A stretch of DNA of 64,000 bases from Rickettsia sp. (GTDB lineage Bacteria; Pseudomonadota; Alphaproteobacteria; Rickettsiales; Rickettsiaceae), in contig JADHZC010000011.1 in assembly GCA_015657545.1 (NCBI GenBank), positions 131,488 to 195,487 of the forward strand, read 5' to 3'. This document shows, in pieces, positions 19,910 through 29,865 of this stretch. A program made the position numbers and the translations under genes. Position 1 is the stretch's first letter; each line of letters begins with the position of its first letter. Under the pieces are notes generated by a model, which was not told where the DNA came from, did no database searches, and worked only from the letters and a program-made list of their open reading frames with translations.

Positions 19910-22729
19910 ATGTTTAAGATATTTAAATTATTTAAGCATTTAGATATTTTAAAAAAAGTTATTTTTTTTAATTCTTTGTTAAATAACATGGTCTCAATAA
20001 AAGATAAATTAGATAAAAATCAGACCAATAAATTAAGAGTTTTCATTGAAAATATTTTAAGTCAGAAATCTGAAGAATTAAAATTTTTTTATTTAGTGCA
20101 AGATTTAGAAAAATTTTTTTCTTCAGAAAATTTATATATGTTTGGTACAATTGATAATTTTTTCTCTTTTATTGGGAATGTAATGGAAAATGTTAATGTT
20201 ATTGATAGCGTGTTTTCTCGATGTTATTATAATTGTATTTCCTTACATGAGCATTTATTTGCAAAACAAACTGTAAAAATAGATTATTTAAAATTCAAAA
20301 AGGAATTTATAGGAAAAGCATCTTATTTATTGCTCTCATATAAAGAGAGTCTGAATGTTAAGAATGAAGAAAAGATTGTAATTGAGTTATGGGAAAGTTT
20401 AGCAAAAATTTCTAATTTTTGTTTAGATAACCATTTTGTAGAAATAGATAGATTTTTTCTAGTTAGTATTAGATTGCTAAAAATTTTATTAAATATAGAG
20501 ATTGTATCTTATAATAATTTTTTTAATATAACATTTGAAAAACTTAATACAAGCTATAATGATTTGCAACTTGTAGTTTCTTCAAAGACATCAGAGAAAG
20601 CATCAAATAATAACAGTGATTTAGCTTTTAAACCAAAAATTAGAATAGAATATGTTGCTCGACATATTAGAAAATTTATAGAAGAATTTTATTCTCATTT
20701 TCAATTAATTTACAAAAGCTTTAATGAACAAGATTTTCAAGAAAAATTTTTACAAAGATTCAATCACTCTTTTCAAAATAAATTTGATTACAATTCATAT
20801 GAACTTCAACAACCAAAACAAAATATCAATAGCTATAAAATAAAATTATCCTTTTTGAAAGACCAATATAAATACAAATTGATAGAGAAGTCAAAAATAT
20901 TACAAGAGGCTTTAGAATCTTATAATTCAGATCTTGTAAGTTTTGTAGATCTTGTAGAGGTTTTATTGCTTTATTCTTTTAATTCTCTTCAAAATGGTTT
21001 TGATGCAAGTGATTCATTAAAAGAATTGCTTCAATTTGTTATGGAACCAGATGATGTTAGTAAATATCTTATTGTACATAAAAAACAAATTTATAAATTA
21101 AGTGATTTGTTAGATCAAAATTTGGCATCTAATATCAAAGATCACTTTTTTTTTAAGATTGTTCAAATACATAGCCAATTTTTGTTGGCTTCTAAGTTTA
21201 TGATTTCTTATTTAAAATACTTCAATTTGCATTATTTCAATAATATAACCGATAGTAAAAATGAATTGGAGTATTGTGAGCTTGATTTAAAAATGTTACA
21301 AAAATTTTATTGTGATGGTGAAGATGTTAATCATTATAGTAATAATATTATTGATCAAATTGAAAGTTTGATAGATAAAGTTTTTGATATAGAAATCAGT
21401 AGGGAAAATTTTGTAAATTTTTCTTCTACACAATCAATATTAAATTTTCAACTATTTTTGAATAGTAGTTATGGTATATTTAAAGTTATAACTGGCAAAT
21501 ATAAATTGGAAGGTGATAGTTGTTTTGTAGCTCATAGAATTTTTCTCAAAAAAAATGATATTGGCTATATGGATTTAATGCATAATTTTGTAATGCTAAA
21601 AATGGATTTTATTTTTGCAAAAGATGTTTTAAATAATCAAAAACAATCAAATAAAAATAGTGAAAAAGTTCAAAAACATGATAATAATGTTGGAAAATAT
21701 TTAATCAAACCTTACGATAGGATACTGAATCAAGAATTAAAATTTATTGATTTAATTGAGTTATCAAAATCTTATGTTTTCTGTAATACATCTATTAATC
21801 AAATTAAAAATCAAAAAGAGAAATTTGTGAGATGCGATTCAAATATGAATAATAGAAATACTCTAATTATAGGTAAATCTTTAGTTTCAAATACAGAATT
21901 AGAAACAAAAAAAATAGATCAATTTGATTTTGAGAGAGATATTAAAAAATCTTCTAGAGATATTAAAAAATCTTCTAGTAGTAAAAGATCATTTCCTGAA
22001 ATTTCTAAAAATAGGTTAGAACAATCCATAATCTTAAAAAATTGTGATATTGAAGAGAAAAAGAAAAATCATCAACAAATATCAAAACAAGATTTAGAGT
22101 ATGTTTCTTGGAAAGATGATGCACAAATATCAAACAGCAAAATTGATGATGAGCAGCAGAAATTTTTACAAAATGATAATAAGAACTTGTTTTTGCACTA
22201 TCAAGACTCGCAGGAATTATATCAGAATTCAAAAATTTTTGATGATTGTGCTCAAATTCAGATACAAAGTCCAATTTTCTTAAATAATCAAACATCAAAA
22301 CTAAAAACTGAATTAGAGAAAAATGATCCTGATTTTGTAAAAAAATTGGAAATATCTCAAAATGTTTCTAAAAGCAAGACACAAGAGAATCGTTCTTCTT
22401 ATTTTCATTATATAGAAAAGCAACATTTTTCTTGCAAGAATAATTTCTTTTTCAAAAAATATCTTTTTATAACAGCTGATCTTTGTAATATGTTAGAAGC
22501 TTTAGATCATGAATCAGAAAAAATTATACGTCTTGATTTTATTGATGATTCTAGAGCTCGTTTTTACTTAAAAAGTGACCAAGTTATTGATATATATATC
22601 AATATAACTTCAGCAGTAGAGTTTCAATACATATGGGACGATTTTTCTTCAATATTAATATTAAATGAAGAACAGCAACAAGCTGCTTTATGTACAATAA
22701 TAGGAGATTTGGAATCAGAAATTTTATAG
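19910..22729 (+). CDS. Large hypothetical protein (939 aa), no recognised domain
   Basis: Single long ORF; helical N/K/S-rich sequence; RDIKKSS tandem repeat. Confidence 0.8.
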   Translation: MFKIFKLFKHLDILKKVIFFNSLLNNMVSIKDKLDKNQTNKLRVFIENILSQKSEELKFFYLVQDLEKFFSSENLYMFGTIDNFFSFIGNVMENVNVIDSVFSRCYYNCISLHEHLFAKQTVKIDYLKFKKEFIGKASYLLLSYKESLNVKNEEKIVIELWESLAKISNFCLDNHFVEIDRFFLVSIRLLKILLNIEIVSYNNFFNITFEKLNTSYNDLQLVVSSKTSEKASNNNSDLAFKPKIRIEYVARHIRKFIEEFYSHFQLIYKSFNEQDFQEKFLQRFNHSFQNKFDYNSYELQQPKQNINSYKIKLSFLKDQYKYKLIEKSKILQEALESYNSDLVSFVDLVEVLLLYSFNSLQNGFDASDSLKELLQFVMEPDDVSKYLIVHKKQIYKLSDLLDQNLASNIKDHFFFKIVQIHSQFLLASKFMISYLKYFNLHYFNNITDSKNELEYCELDLKMLQKFYCDGEDVNHYSNNIIDQIESLIDKVFDIEISRENFVNFSSTQSILNFQLFLNSSYGIFKVITGKYKLEGDSCFVAHRIFLKKNDIGYMDLMHNFVMLKMDFIFAKDVLNNQKQSNKNSEKVQKHDNNVGKYLIKPYDRILNQELKFIDLIELSKSYVFCNTSINQIKNQKEKFVRCDSNMNNRNTLIIGKSLVSNTELETKKIDQFDFERDIKKSSRDIKKSSSSKRSFPEISKNRLEQSIILKNCDIEEKKKNHQQISKQDLEYVSWKDDAQISNSKIDDEQQKFLQNDNKNLFLHYQDSQELYQNSKIFDDCAQIQIQSPIFLNNQTSKLKTELEKNDPDFVKKLEISQNVSKSKTQENRSSYFHYIEKQHFSCKNNFFFKKYLFITADLCNMLEALDHESEKIIRLDFIDDSRARFYLKSDQVIDIYINITSAVEFQYIWDDFSSILILNEEQQQAALCTIIGDLESEIL
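21935..21976 (+). repeat. Perfect 21-nt tandem repeat x2 within the 939-aa ORF
   Basis: agagatattaaaaaatcttct twice in succession, encoding RDIKKSS x2. Confidence 0.95.
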
Positions 22730-23452
22730 GGTTTTTAAAAAATTTTATTTTCCTCGAAATGTTTATTATGAAATTTTAAAAAATTTTTTGTTGATCATAA
22801 TTATTAGCTACCAGAGCTTTTATTAATGGATCTTCGCTTAATTTTTCAATCTCTTCATTTGTGACTTATGTGCGCGTCATATTGTTAATAGCAAATAAAA
22901 AAAATACATATCATTATTTAATAGGAAAATAACCTAAATCTAAAGGAAATTAATTATTATTTTATAACAAAATTGGAATTTTTTGCAAATTTTTTAAGAA
23001 TACTGCACAAGAAGAATATTTATATTTATTTTTAATTTATAGAAAAATAATATTTTTACATAAAACATATGTTTTTAATGAACATTAACTAATAATCTTG
23101 AGATTGCTTTAAAAAATTAGATTCTTAATTAAAGGTTGTTTTTTTGATTTTATTGGTGAGTTAAAAGCTAATTTTTTTAAAAACCAGAAATTTATATAGT
23201 TATTTATAACACTACAGAAGAAAAATTTTAAAAAAATATTGGATTTTCAAAAAACTCTATGATACTCTTTTTGAGTTACTTTTTATAAGGTATTTTTTAA
23301 AATATTTAGGAAAATTTTATGATTAATAGTTGTTATATCCTTTTAAATATTTGATTAGTATTTGCTGCAAAGATTACGAAACTATATAAAGTATATTTTC
23401 AAAAAAATGTACTTTAATTAATTTTTTTAATGTTTATTCAAGGTGATTCTTT

Positions 23453-26377
23453 ATGGTAGGAAATGTTTTAAATCTAGTTTACACAGATACATTTATAGTT
23501 GTTTTATTTTTAGTAGGAACTTTAATAGCTGGATTTAATCATAGGGTGAATAAATTGGAAGATTTTGCTGTTGGGGGGCGAAAATTTCCTTTATTTGCAC
23601 AAATTTGTACCATTGTTGCTACTTGGATGAGCGGAAGCAGCTTTCATTTTATATTTTCTAAGATCTATTCTGAAGGGCTTTATTATTACATAGCTTCTGC
23701 TGGTGCGACATTTTCTTTCTTAATTGTTGCAATATTTTTTATTCCTAGAATGGGAAATTTTTTAGGAAATAATTCTATTGCAGAGTCTATAGGAGATATT
23801 TATGGAGGTATTGTAAGATCTATCACTGCGCTTACTGGTATTTTCTGTGCTATAGGTTATGCTGCAATGCAATTTAAAATTTTTGGAGGATTATTTGAAT
23901 TTTTTTGGAGTTTAGATAGAAGATACTCAATTATAGCTGCTGGAATTATCGTAACTTTATATTCAGCAACAGGGGGTATTAAAGCTGTGACTTATACAGA
24001 TATGGTTCAATTCTCAGCATTTGCTTTAGCTATACCTTTTGTAGGTGTGTTTATTTGGAATGATTGGTATGAAAAATCTGATACTCATGTTTCTACAATA
24101 TTTGAAAATCCTATGTTTGATTATAAACAAGTTTTAGATATTACAAATCCAGAGCTTTGGGCTATAGTTCCTTTATTGATATATTTTTCTATCCCTAATT
24201 TGGGGCCTACTATGTCTCAACGTATCTTAATGGGATCTAATATAAATCAAATTAGAAAAAGTTTTCTTATTAGTGCTATTGTATTAATTACTTTAGAGAC
24301 ACTTTTATCTGCTATCCCATTTCTCTTATATGCTGTAGACCCAAATTTAGATGGAAACAAATTATTTGGACATGTGATGACGAATTATGCTTATCCAGGA
24401 ATTAAAGGTTTACTCATTGTAGGTGTTATAAGCATGGCGATGTCTACTGCTGACTCTTGGATTAACTCTTCTTCTGTTTTCTTTGCGAATGATTTATTTG
24501 CTCAATTTATTACTTCTTCTGAAAAAAAATTAAAATTAGCGAAAATCTTTTCTTTTATGATAGGAATTTTAGCTATTTTTATTGCTACTATAGAGCGTGA
24601 TTTACTTAAATTAATGCTTTCTACTACTTCTTTTTATTACGGTTTGGTTACTCCAATTTTAATATCTGTAGTTTTTGGTTTTAGAACTAAAAAAGTTTTT
24701 GTTTTTATATCAATGCTTACAAGTTTTTGTTATCTTTTGTACATTATTGTAAGCAAAAATTTTGATGTGCCCCCAGAAAATATATTAATAGCAATGCTAA
24801 TTAATGTATCAGTTTTATTCTCCTTACATTATTTTTGGTTTTTTATAACCGTAAAGGAAAACAACCCTTCTTTGGGTTGGATTGGAAATTCTGGTAATAT
24901 TTTTTTGAAACAGCTAAGAAAAAGAAGAAGAGACTTTTTTATTAAATTGGGTTATTCAATAAAAAATTTTAATATTTTGAGTTTATGTATAAAATATGCA
25001 CCAAAAGATCTTAAATCTAGTTTAGCTCTTGGTGTTTACTATATATTTTCTACAATTACCACCATGTATGCAAACATAGATGTTTTCAACGATCATTCTA
25101 AAATAATGATTTATTTATATGAATCTATAATGCTTATAGGTTTAATTATGGCTACTTATTTTTTATGGCCTAATTTTATATCTAATAATTTTGTTGCAAA
25201 ATTTTCCTCTGTTATATGGTTTGGCTCTATTTTTTATGTCTTGTTTTTCTTAAGCAGTTTATTTGCTATGTTAACAAGTTTCAATAGTTTGCAACTTGCG
25301 GTTTTTACTGCCAATACCTTTGTAGCATTTTTACTAGTAGGATGGAGAACATCTTTAGCATTTCTAGGTGTAGGTTTTATTTTAGCCTGGGTATTTTTTA
25401 GTAATTTTTTCGCTTTAGGAGATGAAGGCCTTCATATGGGTTCTCCCTTATTTATTTCTGTGTATTTATTAACTTTAATATCCACAATTGTACTGTTATT
25501 TATAAAACCTAAAGAAGAACATTCTCAGTTAGTAAAAAATATGCTGCAATCTGCTAATCAAAAATTGAATTTGGTTAGTAAGGATTTTGATAAGATATCT
25601 AATGAATTATTTTATACTAAAGGACAGTTAAATTCATTAGATCAACAAATGAGTTTTAAAAATTTAGAAATTGCAAAACTTAAAAATCTTAAAAATGATT
25701 TTATTTCTAACTTTAGAAAAGAAACTCACTCTCCTGTCACAGGAATCATTAGTATGGCTGAAATATTGTATGATTTATATCATCAGTTAGATGAAGAAGA
25801 AAAACAAAGATATCTTATAGAAATCGCTGGAAATGCTAAAAAATTAGTTGGTTTCTTGGATAATATTGTAGATCTTTCTAGTTTATCAGATGGAGGTAAT
25901 TCTGTGTTAGAAATAAAATCAAATTCTATTTCTGATATTATTTATAAACAATCAGAGATATGTAAAAAGGTTTTTTTTAGTCCTATTATGAAAATTTATC
26001 AAGAATTTGTTTTTGATATTCAAAATGATTTTTATGTGGATTGTGATGCTTATTATATAGGACAAGTATGTTCTAATATTATGACCAATGCTATTAATTA
26101 TTCAGATTCTGGTTTTATTTTGGTAAAATGTGAAAAGATTAGCAAAAATGAGATTGAAGTAAGTGTTAGAGATGAAGGGGTAGGAATTCCAGAAAATGAG
26201 ATAAATAAAGTATTTGACCCATTTTATGTATGTTCTAATATTTCTGAAGTTAATTCAAATAGAGGTTTAGGTCTTACTATATCTCAGAAAATTATCCAAT
26301 TACACGGAGGTGTTATGAGTATTAAAAATAACGATACAAGGGGTGTAACCTGTTCATTTACGTTGAGATTGTCTTAG
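23453..26377 (+). CDS. Sodium:solute symporter-histidine kinase fusion (SSS N-terminus, HisKA-like and HATPase C-terminus)
   Basis: PutP-like N-terminus (FAVGGRKFPLFAQICTIVATWMSGSSF; YSATGGIKAVTYTDMVQF); C-terminus with N-box NIMTNAINYSDSG, G1 VRDEGVGIPENEINKVFDPF, G2 NRGLGLTISQKI. Confidence 0.93.
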   Translation: MVGNVLNLVYTDTFIVVLFLVGTLIAGFNHRVNKLEDFAVGGRKFPLFAQICTIVATWMSGSSFHFIFSKIYSEGLYYYIASAGATFSFLIVAIFFIPRMGNFLGNNSIAESIGDIYGGIVRSITALTGIFCAIGYAAMQFKIFGGLFEFFWSLDRRYSIIAAGIIVTLYSATGGIKAVTYTDMVQFSAFALAIPFVGVFIWNDWYEKSDTHVSTIFENPMFDYKQVLDITNPELWAIVPLLIYFSIPNLGPTMSQRILMGSNINQIRKSFLISAIVLITLETLLSAIPFLLYAVDPNLDGNKLFGHVMTNYAYPGIKGLLIVGVISMAMSTADSWINSSSVFFANDLFAQFITSSEKKLKLAKIFSFMIGILAIFIATIERDLLKLMLSTTSFYYGLVTPILISVVFGFRTKKVFVFISMLTSFCYLLYIIVSKNFDVPPENILIAMLINVSVLFSLHYFWFFITVKENNPSLGWIGNSGNIFLKQLRKRRRDFFIKLGYSIKNFNILSLCIKYAPKDLKSSLALGVYYIFSTITTMYANIDVFNDHSKIMIYLYESIMLIGLIMATYFLWPNFISNNFVAKFSSVIWFGSIFYVLFFLSSLFAMLTSFNSLQLAVFTANTFVAFLLVGWRTSLAFLGVGFILAWVFFSNFFALGDEGLHMGSPLFISVYLLTLISTIVLLFIKPKEEHSQLVKNMLQSANQKLNLVSKDFDKISNELFYTKGQLNSLDQQMSFKNLEIAKLKNLKNDFISNFRKETHSPVTGIISMAEILYDLYHQLDEEEKQRYLIEIAGNAKKLVGFLDNIVDLSSLSDGGNSVLEIKSNSISDIIYKQSEICKKVFFSPIMKIYQEFVFDIQNDFYVDCDAYYIGQVCSNIMTNAINYSDSGFILVKCEKISKNEIEVSVRDEGVGIPENEINKVFDPFYVCSNISEVNSNRGLGLTISQKIIQLHGGVMSIKNNDTRGVTCSFTLRLS

Positions 26378-26747
26378 TCTTAATTTATTAAAAATACAAC
26401 ATCAATAAATAAAAGATTGATTTTCATTTTTTTATTTGATTTGGATTTAAGATTTGAAGAGCATTTTTCTATGTGCAGAAGATGTGTTTATGAAATTTAC
26501 ATTTGCACAAAGGGAAAGCATATTCTTAGAGATTTACTGCATACCTTGCTGTAGATAATCATGATACTCTCAATCACCTGAAGGGGATGAGCATCTAGAA
26601 GCAAGTCTAAGCTCAATTACCCCATCATCATCAAGATAGGATATCTAAGTCCTATGAGTCTATGTATATATTGTTATGCTATAGCTAGGATTTTTCCTTT
26701 TGTATATTATGCAAATGCTTCTGCAAAACAATTTACTACATTTATTA

Positions 26748-26770
26748 GCCAGTTCTATACTCTGACTGGC
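26748..26770 (-). other. Hairpin just downstream of tnpB remnant (possible transposon end / omega-RNA relic)
   Basis: gccagt(11 nt)actggc, within a locally less AT-rich stretch. Confidence 0.3.
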
Positions 26771-26797
26771 CTGTATCTAGGCATCTACTACTCCCTC

Positions 26798-27480
26798 TCC
26801 ATTTGATGTTTTGGTCGTAGATGTGTTGGTACTTGAGAGAGGACTACTTCTTTTCCAAAATTTATTCTCTACATATTCATTGCTCTTAACAAATTTCGGT
26901 GGACTACAAATCCACATCTCTTACACAACCAATTCCTTCCCTTCATCCTTTGCTTCATTTGGCATTTTGGACAGATGTTGCTCGGATATTCCTCTTTCTG
27001 AGCTTGTGGAGTATTTTATGCTATACTTTGATGTTTTCTCCTTTATATATTGAATGTCTTTTCCATATTCCCATTGTGACATTCTTTGTTTATGTTTTCT
27101 TCCTGTATCCCTCTTTTCTATTCCTGTTGGAATTCCATACAAATATTTTATTTACTCCATTTAATACACAAAAATTTACTATCTGTCTTGTTGCTTTATG
27201 TCTAAGATCTTTTATCTTTCTCTTTAGTTTATTTCTATATCTATTTTTTGCTATCTTTAATTTTTTGAATCTCTTTGAATGCTTCTTATATCTAGAGATT
27301 TTCTTAGACATTATTCTTAAGAATTTATTTAGCTCTCTCTTCTCGTTTCTTATTCCTCTTCCAAAAATTATTGCTGATTCCCTATTTTTTACTACCACAG
27401 CTCCTAAATGAATCTTCCCTAAATCTACTGTTGCTGTATTCTTAGCTTGATTTAGTGACTTTCCTTCTATTTTTTCTACA
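26798..27480 (-). pseudogene. tnpB: Decayed IS200/IS605-family TnpB (OrfB) remnant
   Basis: Minus-strand ATVDLGKIHLGAVVVKN (RuvC-I-like), RGIRNEKRELNK, LRHKATRQIVNFCVLNGVNKIFVWN, then after a frameshift CPKCQMKQRMKGRNWLCKRCGFVVHRNLLRAMNM* and a detached C-terminus FGKEVVLSQVPTHLRPKHQMERE. Confidence 0.85.
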
Positions 27481-28005
27481 TCTTCTATTTATTTATATAG
27501 ATGGTGTTATTAAAAAACAACATCAACTTTTGATTGTAACACAAAAATACTACTGCTGTGACAAAACCTAGAGATAGAGTCTTTGATAAACTTTTAGTTA
27601 TTTTACATAGAAATTTACTCAAAAAATACTCAATACTATACAAGAAAAAAAGGACTTTACACAAGAACTTTTGATAGCAATTTGGAGATCGCAAAAAAAA
27701 TTTGATAATAACATTTTATAATATGTAAAATATTGTAAAATGTTCAAAAAAGATTAGATGTAAAGACTGATGTTTAATTTTAAAATAAAATTAATTTACT
27801 AAGATTACAATATTAAGTCAAAATATGCAATTTTTATTAAGAAAAGAGATAAGGAAAATTTTACTCAAAACTATGAAATAAAGAAATTAAGGTCTGAAAT
27901 AAAAGAATTAAATAATGAATTCAAAATCCTAATATATCAAAAATCTTACATTTAAGTTATAAAAAGAGGAAAGCGATATCCAAAAAAACTCAATTAAATA
28001 AATTA

Positions 28006-29865
28006 ATGTACTTCGATAAGAAACAAGATCCTAAATTATTTTATTTTTATAAAGAATTTTTAAAACTTTTAGATAGATTTTCGCAAGATTTTTCTTCTAT
28101 ATTTAGGAATGATGTTAATAGTAAAAAATATTTCTCTTCGGATCTTTTTATTGAAGAAGAACTAAGCTTTCAGCATAAGAGAGATTTATCTTTACATTAC
28201 ATACAATTACTGGGGCTTTTAGGAAAACTCAGTATCCTCTTTCCTTGTGATGTGCCTGAATTTAAATTAGCAAGTGCTGTCAATAATTTATCAGCTTTTG
28301 AAAGTCCTTCTTTTCTTGAAGAAGATTATAACAAATATAAATCTCAATTAGATTTACGCAAAAACAGACTTTATACTCAAGAAAAAAGAAAGTTAAAGGG
28401 TCTTGAAAATCAGAAGAATGGTAAGATTCAAAATCTAGAAAAACCAGAAGAAAAAATATTAAGAAAAAAACGAGTATTAGAATTGTCAATCATAGAAGAT
28501 TCCAAAAAACAATTTCACAATTCAAAAAATATTTCCAAAATTTTAAAAAAAATCGCTCAATTAGAAAAGGAAAAATATGAGCTTACTGAAAAGTTTAGAG
28601 AATTTTATGAATATTCAGAAAATAAATCACAGAAATTAGAGAAATACATTGAGAAATTTGAGAAATTAAGTATAGAATCCACTAAAAAAGATTTTGAATT
28701 AACTATTTTCAAAAAGAAATTAGGTAAAAAATTCGAAATATCAAAAAACAATTGCATTACTCAAAATATCATGATGAAGAATTTAGAAAATTTTGATGAA
28801 GAATTAGTAGAGCAGTTCAGAAATATGCAATCAAGACAAGAAACTCAAGCTATTTATAAAAATTCTCAAGATATAAATTTGAAATATTTTTTTAATGATT
28901 CTATTTGTCCTTCTAATCTTGATAATAGGACAAAAATCAACTTTTCAAATTATGATGATGAAATCGAGAATAAAAATTTAAAATTACAAAACAATTCTAA
29001 AAGAATATTAAATTCTTTAAAAAGAATTGTTAAAAATTTATTAAATTATGTTCAAGATATTAAAATTCATAAAATAGTAAGTATTAATAAAAATGAGATA
29101 GATTCATCAAAATATATTACAAAAGAATTAGAGCATCAAGAAAAGATTGTAAAGGATTTACTGCAATATATTGAGAATCTTAGAATATATCCCATTTTTG
29201 ATAAAAAACAAAAAATTCAAATATCTGTAAAAGGTCAAACAGAATTATCAAAAAATTTTTCAGATTCATTAAATGTTCAGCAATTGGATGTTAGAGATAT
29301 GAAAATGCAAAATAAAAAATTATGTGAAAATTTATTTGTCATTCAAAATGATATTATAAATTTTACGAAGAATTTTAGTAAAGATAATTTAGAAAATTTT
29401 ACCTCTCTAGAAAAGCAAAAATTTTATGAAATATTTGATATTATACAAATAATTTTTATATATCATAAAAAATTATGTTTTTATTATTCTTTATTAGATG
29501 AAGGAAGTAAGCAAAAATTGTTAGATTGGAAACTTAATGAACTTATAGATGACATTTCTAATTTTTTTAGTGATATTAATGAGAATTCTGCAAAATTCAT
29601 AGATAATGTTTTAGTAGAAAATCGAAAAAAATTTTTTTTGTTATCTTCTAGGTTAGATAATTTTATTAAAAGCAATCAATTTTCTAAAGGTAAGATTATA
29701 TCAGAATATAATGATGTTAAAATAATAGAATTTTCTTCTTTTGAAGAAAAAATAGTGAGGGTAGAATTATATTCCTATGATCCTATTGAATTTTCTGGAG
29801 AAACAGTCAATTCATCAGCATTAATTTTTGGTGATAGTATAATTTTAGAAAGTGAAATTGCATAA
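28006..29865 (+). CDS. Large hypothetical coiled-coil protein (619 aa) with internal repeat
   Basis: Long ORF, K/E-rich coiled coil; internal repeat RIVKNLLNYVQDIKIH... / KIVKDLLQYIENLRIY... Confidence 0.8.
   Translation: MYFDKKQDPKLFYFYKEFLKLLDRFSQDFSSIFRNDVNSKKYFSSDLFIEEELSFQHKRDLSLHYIQLLGLLGKLSILFPCDVPEFKLASAVNNLSAFESPSFLEEDYNKYKSQLDLRKNRLYTQEKRKLKGLENQKNGKIQNLEKPEEKILRKKRVLELSIIEDSKKQFHNSKNISKILKKIAQLEKEKYELTEKFREFYEYSENKSQKLEKYIEKFEKLSIESTKKDFELTIFKKKLGKKFEISKNNCITQNIMMKNLENFDEELVEQFRNMQSRQETQAIYKNSQDINLKYFFNDSICPSNLDNRTKINFSNYDDEIENKNLKLQNNSKRILNSLKRIVKNLLNYVQDIKIHKIVSINKNEIDSSKYITKELEHQEKIVKDLLQYIENLRIYPIFDKKQKIQISVKGQTELSKNFSDSLNVQQLDVRDMKMQNKKLCENLFVIQNDIINFTKNFSKDNLENFTSLEKQKFYEIFDIIQIIFIYHKKLCFYYSLLDEGSKQKLLDWKLNELIDDISNFFSDINENSAKFIDNVLVENRKKFFLLSSRLDNFIKSNQFSKGKIISEYNDVKIIEFSSFEEKIVRVELYSYDPIEFSGETVNSSALIFGDSIILESEIA

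What the first reader, a model, noticed from the sequence alone, without database searches (positions are those of the whole stretch)
23453..26377. Symporter-histidine kinase fusion with Lys in place of the canonical phosphoacceptor His
The C-terminal half has intact-looking HATPase N, G1 and G2 motifs, but the H-box reads FISNFRKETHSPVTGI. Aligned to the usual F(L/I)xNxSHExRTPLxGI, the His position is Lys (codon aaa) and the only nearby His sits at the usual Arg position, three residues later. The SSS transporter half looks full length. So this may be a pseudo-kinase or phosphatase-only regulator, a kinase with a relocated acceptor, or a transporter that senses solutes without conventional phosphotransfer. 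SSS-HK fusions such as CbrA-like proteins are known; the altered H-box is the unusual part.
Basis: partly seen in the sequence, partly recalled or inferred. Interest (0 to 1): 0.62.

Follow-up and report, generated by a model that had tools for sequence, protein, structure and literature searches.

The report
Transporter fused to acceptor-less histidine kinase
This gene of a Rickettsiaceae symbiont fuses a nutrient transporter to a histidine kinase that has lost the one histidine needed to pass on phosphate, while the rest of the kinase looks maintained; relatives repeat this loss, which suggests that some of these sensor-transporters signal by steering partner proteins rather than by phosphorylating them.

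Summary
Observation confirmed: ORF 23453-26377 (974 aa) is an SSS (SLC5) transporter plus a HisKA/HATPase_c module. The phosphoacceptor is Lys756 (aaa, 25718-25720) in every alignment, at least two base changes from any His codon. The His at +3 is not a relocated acceptor: 18 of 64 non-redundant canonical relatives, and the intact paralog in the same genome, carry it together with the normal His. The Lys is not clade-conserved; no ortholog was found. The kinase is not rotten: ATP-site motifs are intact, and conserved positions are kept as expected for a working kinase of this divergence (residual -0.03; decayed relatives -0.45 to -0.6). Loss of the acceptor with a largely intact ATP domain recurred at least three times in Rickettsiaceae (K; tandem K/Q/Q; I), and the tandem set evolves under purifying selection (dN/dS 0.08-0.20 in DHp, 0.12-0.13 in CA). 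The DHp is 60% identical to that of the genome's only intact SSS-kinase (transporters 43%), with the same specificity residues. Best reading: a transporter-pseudokinase that modulates that sister kinase or its regulator, probably with neither kinase nor strong phosphatase activity. Main rival: an early stage of the two-component erosion visible in this genome.

The parts
23453..26377 (+). SSS transporter - pseudo-histidine kinase, whole ORF (974 aa)
23564..24679 (+). SSF (sodium:solute symporter) domain, residues 38-409
   Evidence: Pfam PF00474 66.9 bits; NCBIfam TIGR00813 sss 88.9 bits, below its cut-off of 184; PDB sequence matches to choline transporter CHT1 and vSGLT
24443..24448 (+). Ser331-Thr332 in MSTADS, at the place of the PutP Na+ ligand pair
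   Evidence: invariant in the family alignment; position; PutP role from PMC7096432 and general knowledge
25097..25513 (+). second membrane segment, residues 549-687, with several hydrophobic stretches, between transporter and kinase
   Evidence: hydropathy; no STAC or PAS match in Pfam
25523..25687 (+). helical linker, residues 691-745
   Evidence: AlphaFold model: one long helix running into DHp helix 1
25688..25891 (+). DHp (HisKA) domain, residues 746-813
   Evidence: Pfam PF00512; 60% identical to paralog L002
25718..25720 (+). Lys756 codon aaa at the phosphoacceptor position
25727..25729 (+). His759 (+3), common at this position in canonical relatives; not a relocated acceptor
   Evidence: 18 of 64 non-redundant canonical relatives
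26054..26371 (+). HATPase_c (CA) domain, residues 868-973
   Evidence: Pfam PF02518 76.8 bits; highest-scoring HATPase_c match in the genome
26063..26104 (+). N box QVCSNIMTNAINYS
   Evidence: both Asn kept
26165..26191 (+). G1 box VRDEGVGIP
   Evidence: DxGxG kept
26258..26281 (+). G2 box NRGLGLTI
   Evidence: GxG kept

Best explanation
It is a transporter-pseudokinase: a probably working SSS solute transporter whose fused histidine-kinase module can still fold, dimerise and probably bind ATP but cannot take phosphate on the standard His. Most likely it acts as a regulatory partner. Its DHp closely resembles that of the only intact SSS-kinase of the genome (L002) and keeps its response-regulator specificity residues, so transport state or ligand could be passed on by mixed dimers with L002 (lending a CA domain in trans, or silencing it) or by binding the shared response regulator (NtrX or CtrA are the only stand-alone candidates found). 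Shown here: acceptor loss, intact ATP motifs, constraint pattern, DHp similarity, regulator inventory. Inferred: ATP binding, mixed dimers, which regulator, and that transport state is the signal.
For: (1) Lys756 replaces a residue that is His in 64/64 canonical relatives. (2) N, G1, F and G2 residues all intact; best HATPase_c score in the genome. (3) 85% of the other conserved kinase positions kept, as expected for canonical kinases of the same divergence (residual -0.028, canonical sd 0.046); decayed modules sit at -0.45 to -0.6. (4) DHp 60% identical to L002, against 43% for transporters and 40% for CA; five of six helix-1 specificity positions identical, TGSMEI vs TGSMEA (positions from PMC2991266). 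(5) The same event elsewhere: tandem paralogs in G012 carry K, Q and Q and are under purifying selection (DHp dN/dS 0.08-0.20, CA 0.12-0.13); G022 has Ile with CA 73% conserved to a sister. (6) AlphaFold model (pLDDT 86.9) superposes on HK853-RR468 and on pseudokinase DivL. (7) DivL, with Tyr for His, works without kinase or phosphatase activity (PMC4211667).
Against: The kinase half evolves faster than that of L002 (DHp branch 0.49 vs 0.08, CA 0.74 vs 0.37) while the transporter evolves slower (0.42 vs 0.60), which also fits relaxed constraint. No ortholog carries the Lys, so direct selection on this gene cannot be measured. The genome is shedding two-component parts. No partner is shown experimentally, and the gene has no neighbouring response regulator.
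Confidence: 0.52

Rival explanations
1. Recent start of decay: the protein is now only a transporter and the kinase half is a dispensable tail, caught soon after losing its acceptor.
For: In the same genome L003 has lost His and CA motifs, L004 ends before the kinase, the non-SSS kinase L125 has Glu for His and no CA motifs while its counterparts L126/L127 are intact, and NtrY is missing beside NtrX. In the same-genus genome two sister proteins (L023, L070) lack the kinase. The kinase half is faster than in L002 while the transporter is slower. In CbrA the transporter works without the kinase (PMC7096432).
Against: Every ATP-site residue checked is kept, there is no stop, and conserved-site retention sits on the canonical line. 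Decay does not explain G012, where acceptor-less modules are under purifying selection after duplication.
Confidence: 0.34
2. Phosphatase-only regulator of a response regulator.
For: Glu757 kept and Ser at the Thr position of the ExxT motif; RR-specificity residues kept.
Against: In HK853 the acceptor His itself serves phosphatase and H260A lowers it; Thr264 is also needed (PMC5727384). DivL has neither activity; no phosphatase activity was detected for CbrA.
Confidence: 0.08
3. Relocated acceptor: His759, three residues later, takes the phosphate.
For: It lies on the same helix, one turn on (model).
Against: His at this position is found in 18 of 64 canonical relatives that also have the normal His, and in the sister paralog L002, so it is inherited, not gained.
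Confidence: 0.03
4. Lys756 itself is phosphorylated as a phospholysine relay.
For: G012 shows an independent Lys at the same place.
Against: The other G012 copies carry Gln and G022 carries Ile, so Lys is not specially selected.
Confidence: 0.02
5. Sequencing or assembly error at the codon.
For: The window is from a draft assembly with one copy of the gene.
Against: aaa is two substitutions from cat or cac; the surrounding reading frame is clean.
Confidence: 0.01

Closest known systems
Rickettsiales PutP-type SSS-histidine kinases (e.g. Orientia 'putP' with HisKA/HATPase_c/REC; PMC10732058)
   Same: SSS domain plus HisKA plus HATPase_c, multi-copy, with truncated copies; same family of organisms
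   Different: Acceptor His replaced by Lys here; no REC domain; acceptor loss is not discussed in the passages of that paper that I read
CbrA / CrbS SLC5-STAC histidine kinases (PMC7096432, PMC5715377)
   Same: Transporter fused to a HisKA kinase; in CbrA transport persists when the acceptor is changed (H766N)
   Different: No PAS match; a second membrane segment instead of a STAC-PAS stretch; no adjacent NtrC-type regulator; acceptor naturally absent
DivL, Caulobacter pseudo-histidine kinase (PMC4211667)
   Same: Non-His residue at the acceptor site of an otherwise recognisable DHp-CA; structural match 4q20 (TM 0.69/0.83)
   Different: DivL has PAS domains, Tyr at the site, is conserved across alphaproteobacteria and binds ATP weakly; this protein carries a transporter and Lys, and has no known ortholog

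Membership tests
SSS / SLC5 transporter (PF00474) | SSF domain match above the Pfam cut-off | tested here: met
   66.9 bits, cut-off 22.8
SSS / SLC5 transporter (PF00474) | Transport activity | not testable with these tools
   needs an uptake assay; Ser331/Thr332 kept
HisKA histidine kinase | Phosphoacceptor His in the H-box | tested here: not met
   Lys756
HisKA histidine kinase | N, G1, F, G2 boxes of the ATP site | tested here: met
HisKA histidine kinase | DHp helical hairpin plus CA fold | tested here: met
   AlphaFold pLDDT 86.9; Foldseek hits to HK853 and WalK
SLC5/STAC histidine kinase (CbrA, CrbS) | PAS domain before DHp, as in CbrA | tested here: not met
   no PAS match in Pfam
SLC5/STAC histidine kinase (CbrA, CrbS) | STAC domain after SLC5 | tested here: inconclusive
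   region 549-687 is hydrophobic; no STAC model was among the Pfam matches
Pseudo-histidine kinase (DivL-like in mechanism) | Acceptor replaced, DHp-CA fold retained | tested here: met
Pseudo-histidine kinase (DivL-like in mechanism) | Binds a phosphorylated regulator and acts on another kinase | not testable with these tools
   needs binding assays and genetics
DivL ortholog | PAS-DHp-CA architecture with Tyr at the acceptor | tested here: not met
   transporter instead of PAS; Lys

The most novel reading that the evidence does not exclude
Rickettsiaceae keep arrays of different transporters that share one kinase cassette, kept alike by gene conversion, so that the copies can mix as dimers; acceptor-less members such as this one are true regulatory subunits that feed the state of their own transporter into the shared output by lending or withholding a CA domain.
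Probability: 0.25. Interest if true: 0.72.

Novelty: new variant of a known kind. Interest (0 to 1): 0.48.

Why it matters
SSS-kinase fusions and pseudo-histidine kinases are each known, but I found no report of transporter-fused pseudokinases in the library searched. A recurrent, selected loss of the acceptor would mean that sensor-transporters in these intracellular bacteria can signal through partner control rather than phosphotransfer, and the cases in G012 and this genome make that testable with purified domains. The kinase-cassette exchange gives a simple idea of how one output pathway could listen to many transporters in genomes with few response regulators.

Tried and rejected
Relocated acceptor at +3 (rejected: ancestral His). 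Single-base error (rejected: two changes needed). A clade-wide conserved Lys (rejected: no close ortholog among 85 family genomes; best match in the same-genus genome is 33% identical and lacks the kinase). Uniform decay of the kinase half (not supported by the conserved-site test, though an early stage is not excluded). First genome-contig scan with the single protein found nothing; an alignment query gave 80 loci. ChpT was sought with PF10090 and found only in G028, but that model also missed G001, G012 and G067, so nothing follows for G000. Rfam (22000-29000) and tRNA scans (whole window) were empty. No paper in the library joined Rickettsiales with solute symporter and histidine kinase, and a search for gene conversion with kinase, paralog and symporter terms gave nothing on point. 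The NtrY search was first run without a positive control and repeated with five genomes that do ring. One NCBIfam scan gave only matches below cut-off.

Full report
WHAT IS THERE. The ORF at 23453-26377 encodes 974 residues without interruption. Pfam finds an SSF transporter domain (38-409), a HisKA domain just under its cut-off (747-813) and a strong HATPase_c domain (868-973). Between transporter and kinase lies a second membrane stretch (about 549-687) and a helical linker. The H-box FISNFRKETHSPVTGI has Lys756, codon aaa at 25718-25720, where His is expected; alignment to relatives and to a solved kinase agree. The His at +3 (His759) is real, but it is an old residue: of 64 non-redundant canonical relatives 18 have His there, 30 Arg and 14 Asn, all with the normal His as well. 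The intact paralog in the same genome reads FINNLQHETHTPITGI.

WHERE IT IS. The window lies in a 995 kb, 11-contig genome, about 92% complete. The one other genome of its genus that is held (G001) has a contig of the same length, 148,255 bases, as a record of the Rickettsia endosymbiont of Cardiosporidium cionae, so the family is Rickettsiaceae. Neighbours are housekeeping genes (a RecG-like helicase, a DNA polymerase III delta' subunit, a GltX-type synthetase, FolD, MnmG) and two large proteins without Pfam match; no response regulator is adjacent.

RELATIVES. SSS-kinases are multi-copy in the family (64 of 85 genomes match at E <= 1e-60, a count that includes SSS proteins without a kinase). 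I read about 130 members. Most have HE plus intact N, G1 and G2 boxes. Four full-length proteins lack the acceptor but keep a largely intact ATP site: this one (K), two tandem copies in G012 (K, Q) and one in G022 (I); the G012 pair has Tyr at the first N-box Asn. A third G012 copy (Q) is split in its transporter half. A G013 protein (Q) keeps N and G1 but not G2. On the transporter tree the window, G012 and G022 cases lie in different clades, so at least three losses. Many others lost acceptor and ATP site together, or the whole kinase.

IS THE KINASE HALF MAINTAINED? Three tests. First, conserved positions: leaving out the His, this protein keeps 85% of 33 sites, as canonical kinases of its divergence do (residual -0.028, sd 0.046); G012 and G022 give -0.04 to -0.075; five decayed modules give -0.45 to -0.6. 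Second, G012: all three copies lack the acceptor, so on the simplest history their differences arose after its loss; dN/dS is 0.08-0.20 in DHp and 0.12-0.13 in CA (synonymous sites are partly saturated). In G022 the DHp is relaxed (0.52) while CA is not (0.23). Third, relative rates: this protein's DHp and CA branches are 6 and 2 times those of L002, while its transporter branch is 0.7 times. So the module is intact but has been freer to change; this is compatible with re-use or with an early stage of loss.

PARTNERS. Kinase-like proteins found in the genome: L002 (intact SSS-kinase), a CckA-like hybrid (L113), this protein, L003 (SSS-kinase with His and CA gone) and L125 (beside a RodA/FtsW-type gene; Glu for His and no CA motifs, whereas the counterparts L126/L127 beside the same gene in G001 and G028 read HEIRSP). 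Receiver domains: CtrA-like L112, NtrX-like L114 and the hybrid's own; these names rest on my reading of the sequences. NtrY was not found though it rings in five relatives; in G001 it lies directly upstream of NtrX, whereas here a GlyS-like ORF precedes NtrX, so a contig gap is not the likely reason. NtrX therefore looks like an orphan. The DHp of this protein is 60% identical to that of L002, more than any other module of the pair (transporter 43, membrane 24, linker 24, CA 40%) and more than to the other relatives compared (25-40%). Helix-1 specificity positions are TGSMEI against TGSMEA, using positions defined in EnvZ (PMC2991266). The G012 and G022 cases have lost this pattern; this protein has not.

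HOW IT MOST LIKELY WORKS. A DivL-like use, but with a transporter as input: the module no longer passes phosphate but can dimerise with L002 or dock the same regulator, and so report or impose a transport-dependent state. DivL shows that a kinase with another residue at the acceptor can work with neither kinase nor phosphatase activity (PMC4211667). A pure phosphatase is less likely, because in HK853 the acceptor His also serves phosphatase (PMC5727384). In CbrA the acceptor mutant H766N still transports but does not signal (PMC7096432), so transport alone could survive the change seen here. The AlphaFold model of residues 690-974 (pLDDT 86.9, pTM 0.73) superposes on HK853-RR468 complexes and on DivL; it is a monomer model and says nothing on dimers.

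KINASE CASSETTE EXCHANGE. Within single genomes, SSS-kinases with transporters only 34-45% identical have kinase modules 90-99% identical (G006, G028, G067). For pairs with transporter identity under 60%, kinase minus transporter identity averages +12 points within genomes (148 pairs) and -2 between genomes (3263 pairs); the nearest relative is in the same genome for 24 of 70 by transporter and 47 of 70 by kinase. In G006 nucleotide identity jumps from 0.43 to 0.94-1.00 about 50 codons before the His and stays at 1.00 for some 200 codons. This is the mark of recent gene conversion or module replacement. It suggests one output for many transporters and would favour mixed dimers; both are inference.

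CAVEATS. Members were chosen by similarity to the window protein, so frequencies are not unbiased. No ortholog of the Lys form is known. All functional steps are inferred.

VERDICT.

Noticed in passing
L012/L097 and L080/L100 (G006), L011/L081 (G028), L053/L057/L058 (G067): SSS-kinase paralogs with transporters 34-45% identical share kinase modules about 90-99% identical, with a sharp nucleotide breakpoint about 50 codons before the His: kinase-cassette gene conversion or replacement.
   Followed up: partly
L110:1108-6768 and L131 (G012:C1 about 793500-803000): Tandem acceptor-less SSS-kinases (Q, Q, K) under purifying selection; the first has its transporter half split by a frame change.
   Followed up: partly
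L125 (G000:C5:31800-36500, minus strand): A 552-aa non-SSS kinase beside a RodA/FtsW-type gene has EEIKNY for the HEIRSP of its counterparts in G001 and G028, and no CA motifs: another lost kinase in this genome.
   Followed up: partly
L114 (G000:C4 about 93600-97000): NtrX-like regulator without NtrY: NtrY was not found in the genome, and a GlyS-like ORF lies upstream where G001 has NtrY.
   Followed up: partly
window 27090-27398 (-): Fragment of an IS605 OrfB-type transposase (TnpB relative) in the gap downstream of the gene.
   Followed up: no
window 19910-22729 (+) and 28006-29865 (+): Two large flanking proteins (939 and 619 aa) with no Pfam match.
   Followed up: no
L021, L071, L084 (G015) and L036 (G019): The reverse case: acceptor His kept but G1 box lost, which could pair with acceptor-less, ATP-competent partners.
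   Followed up: no
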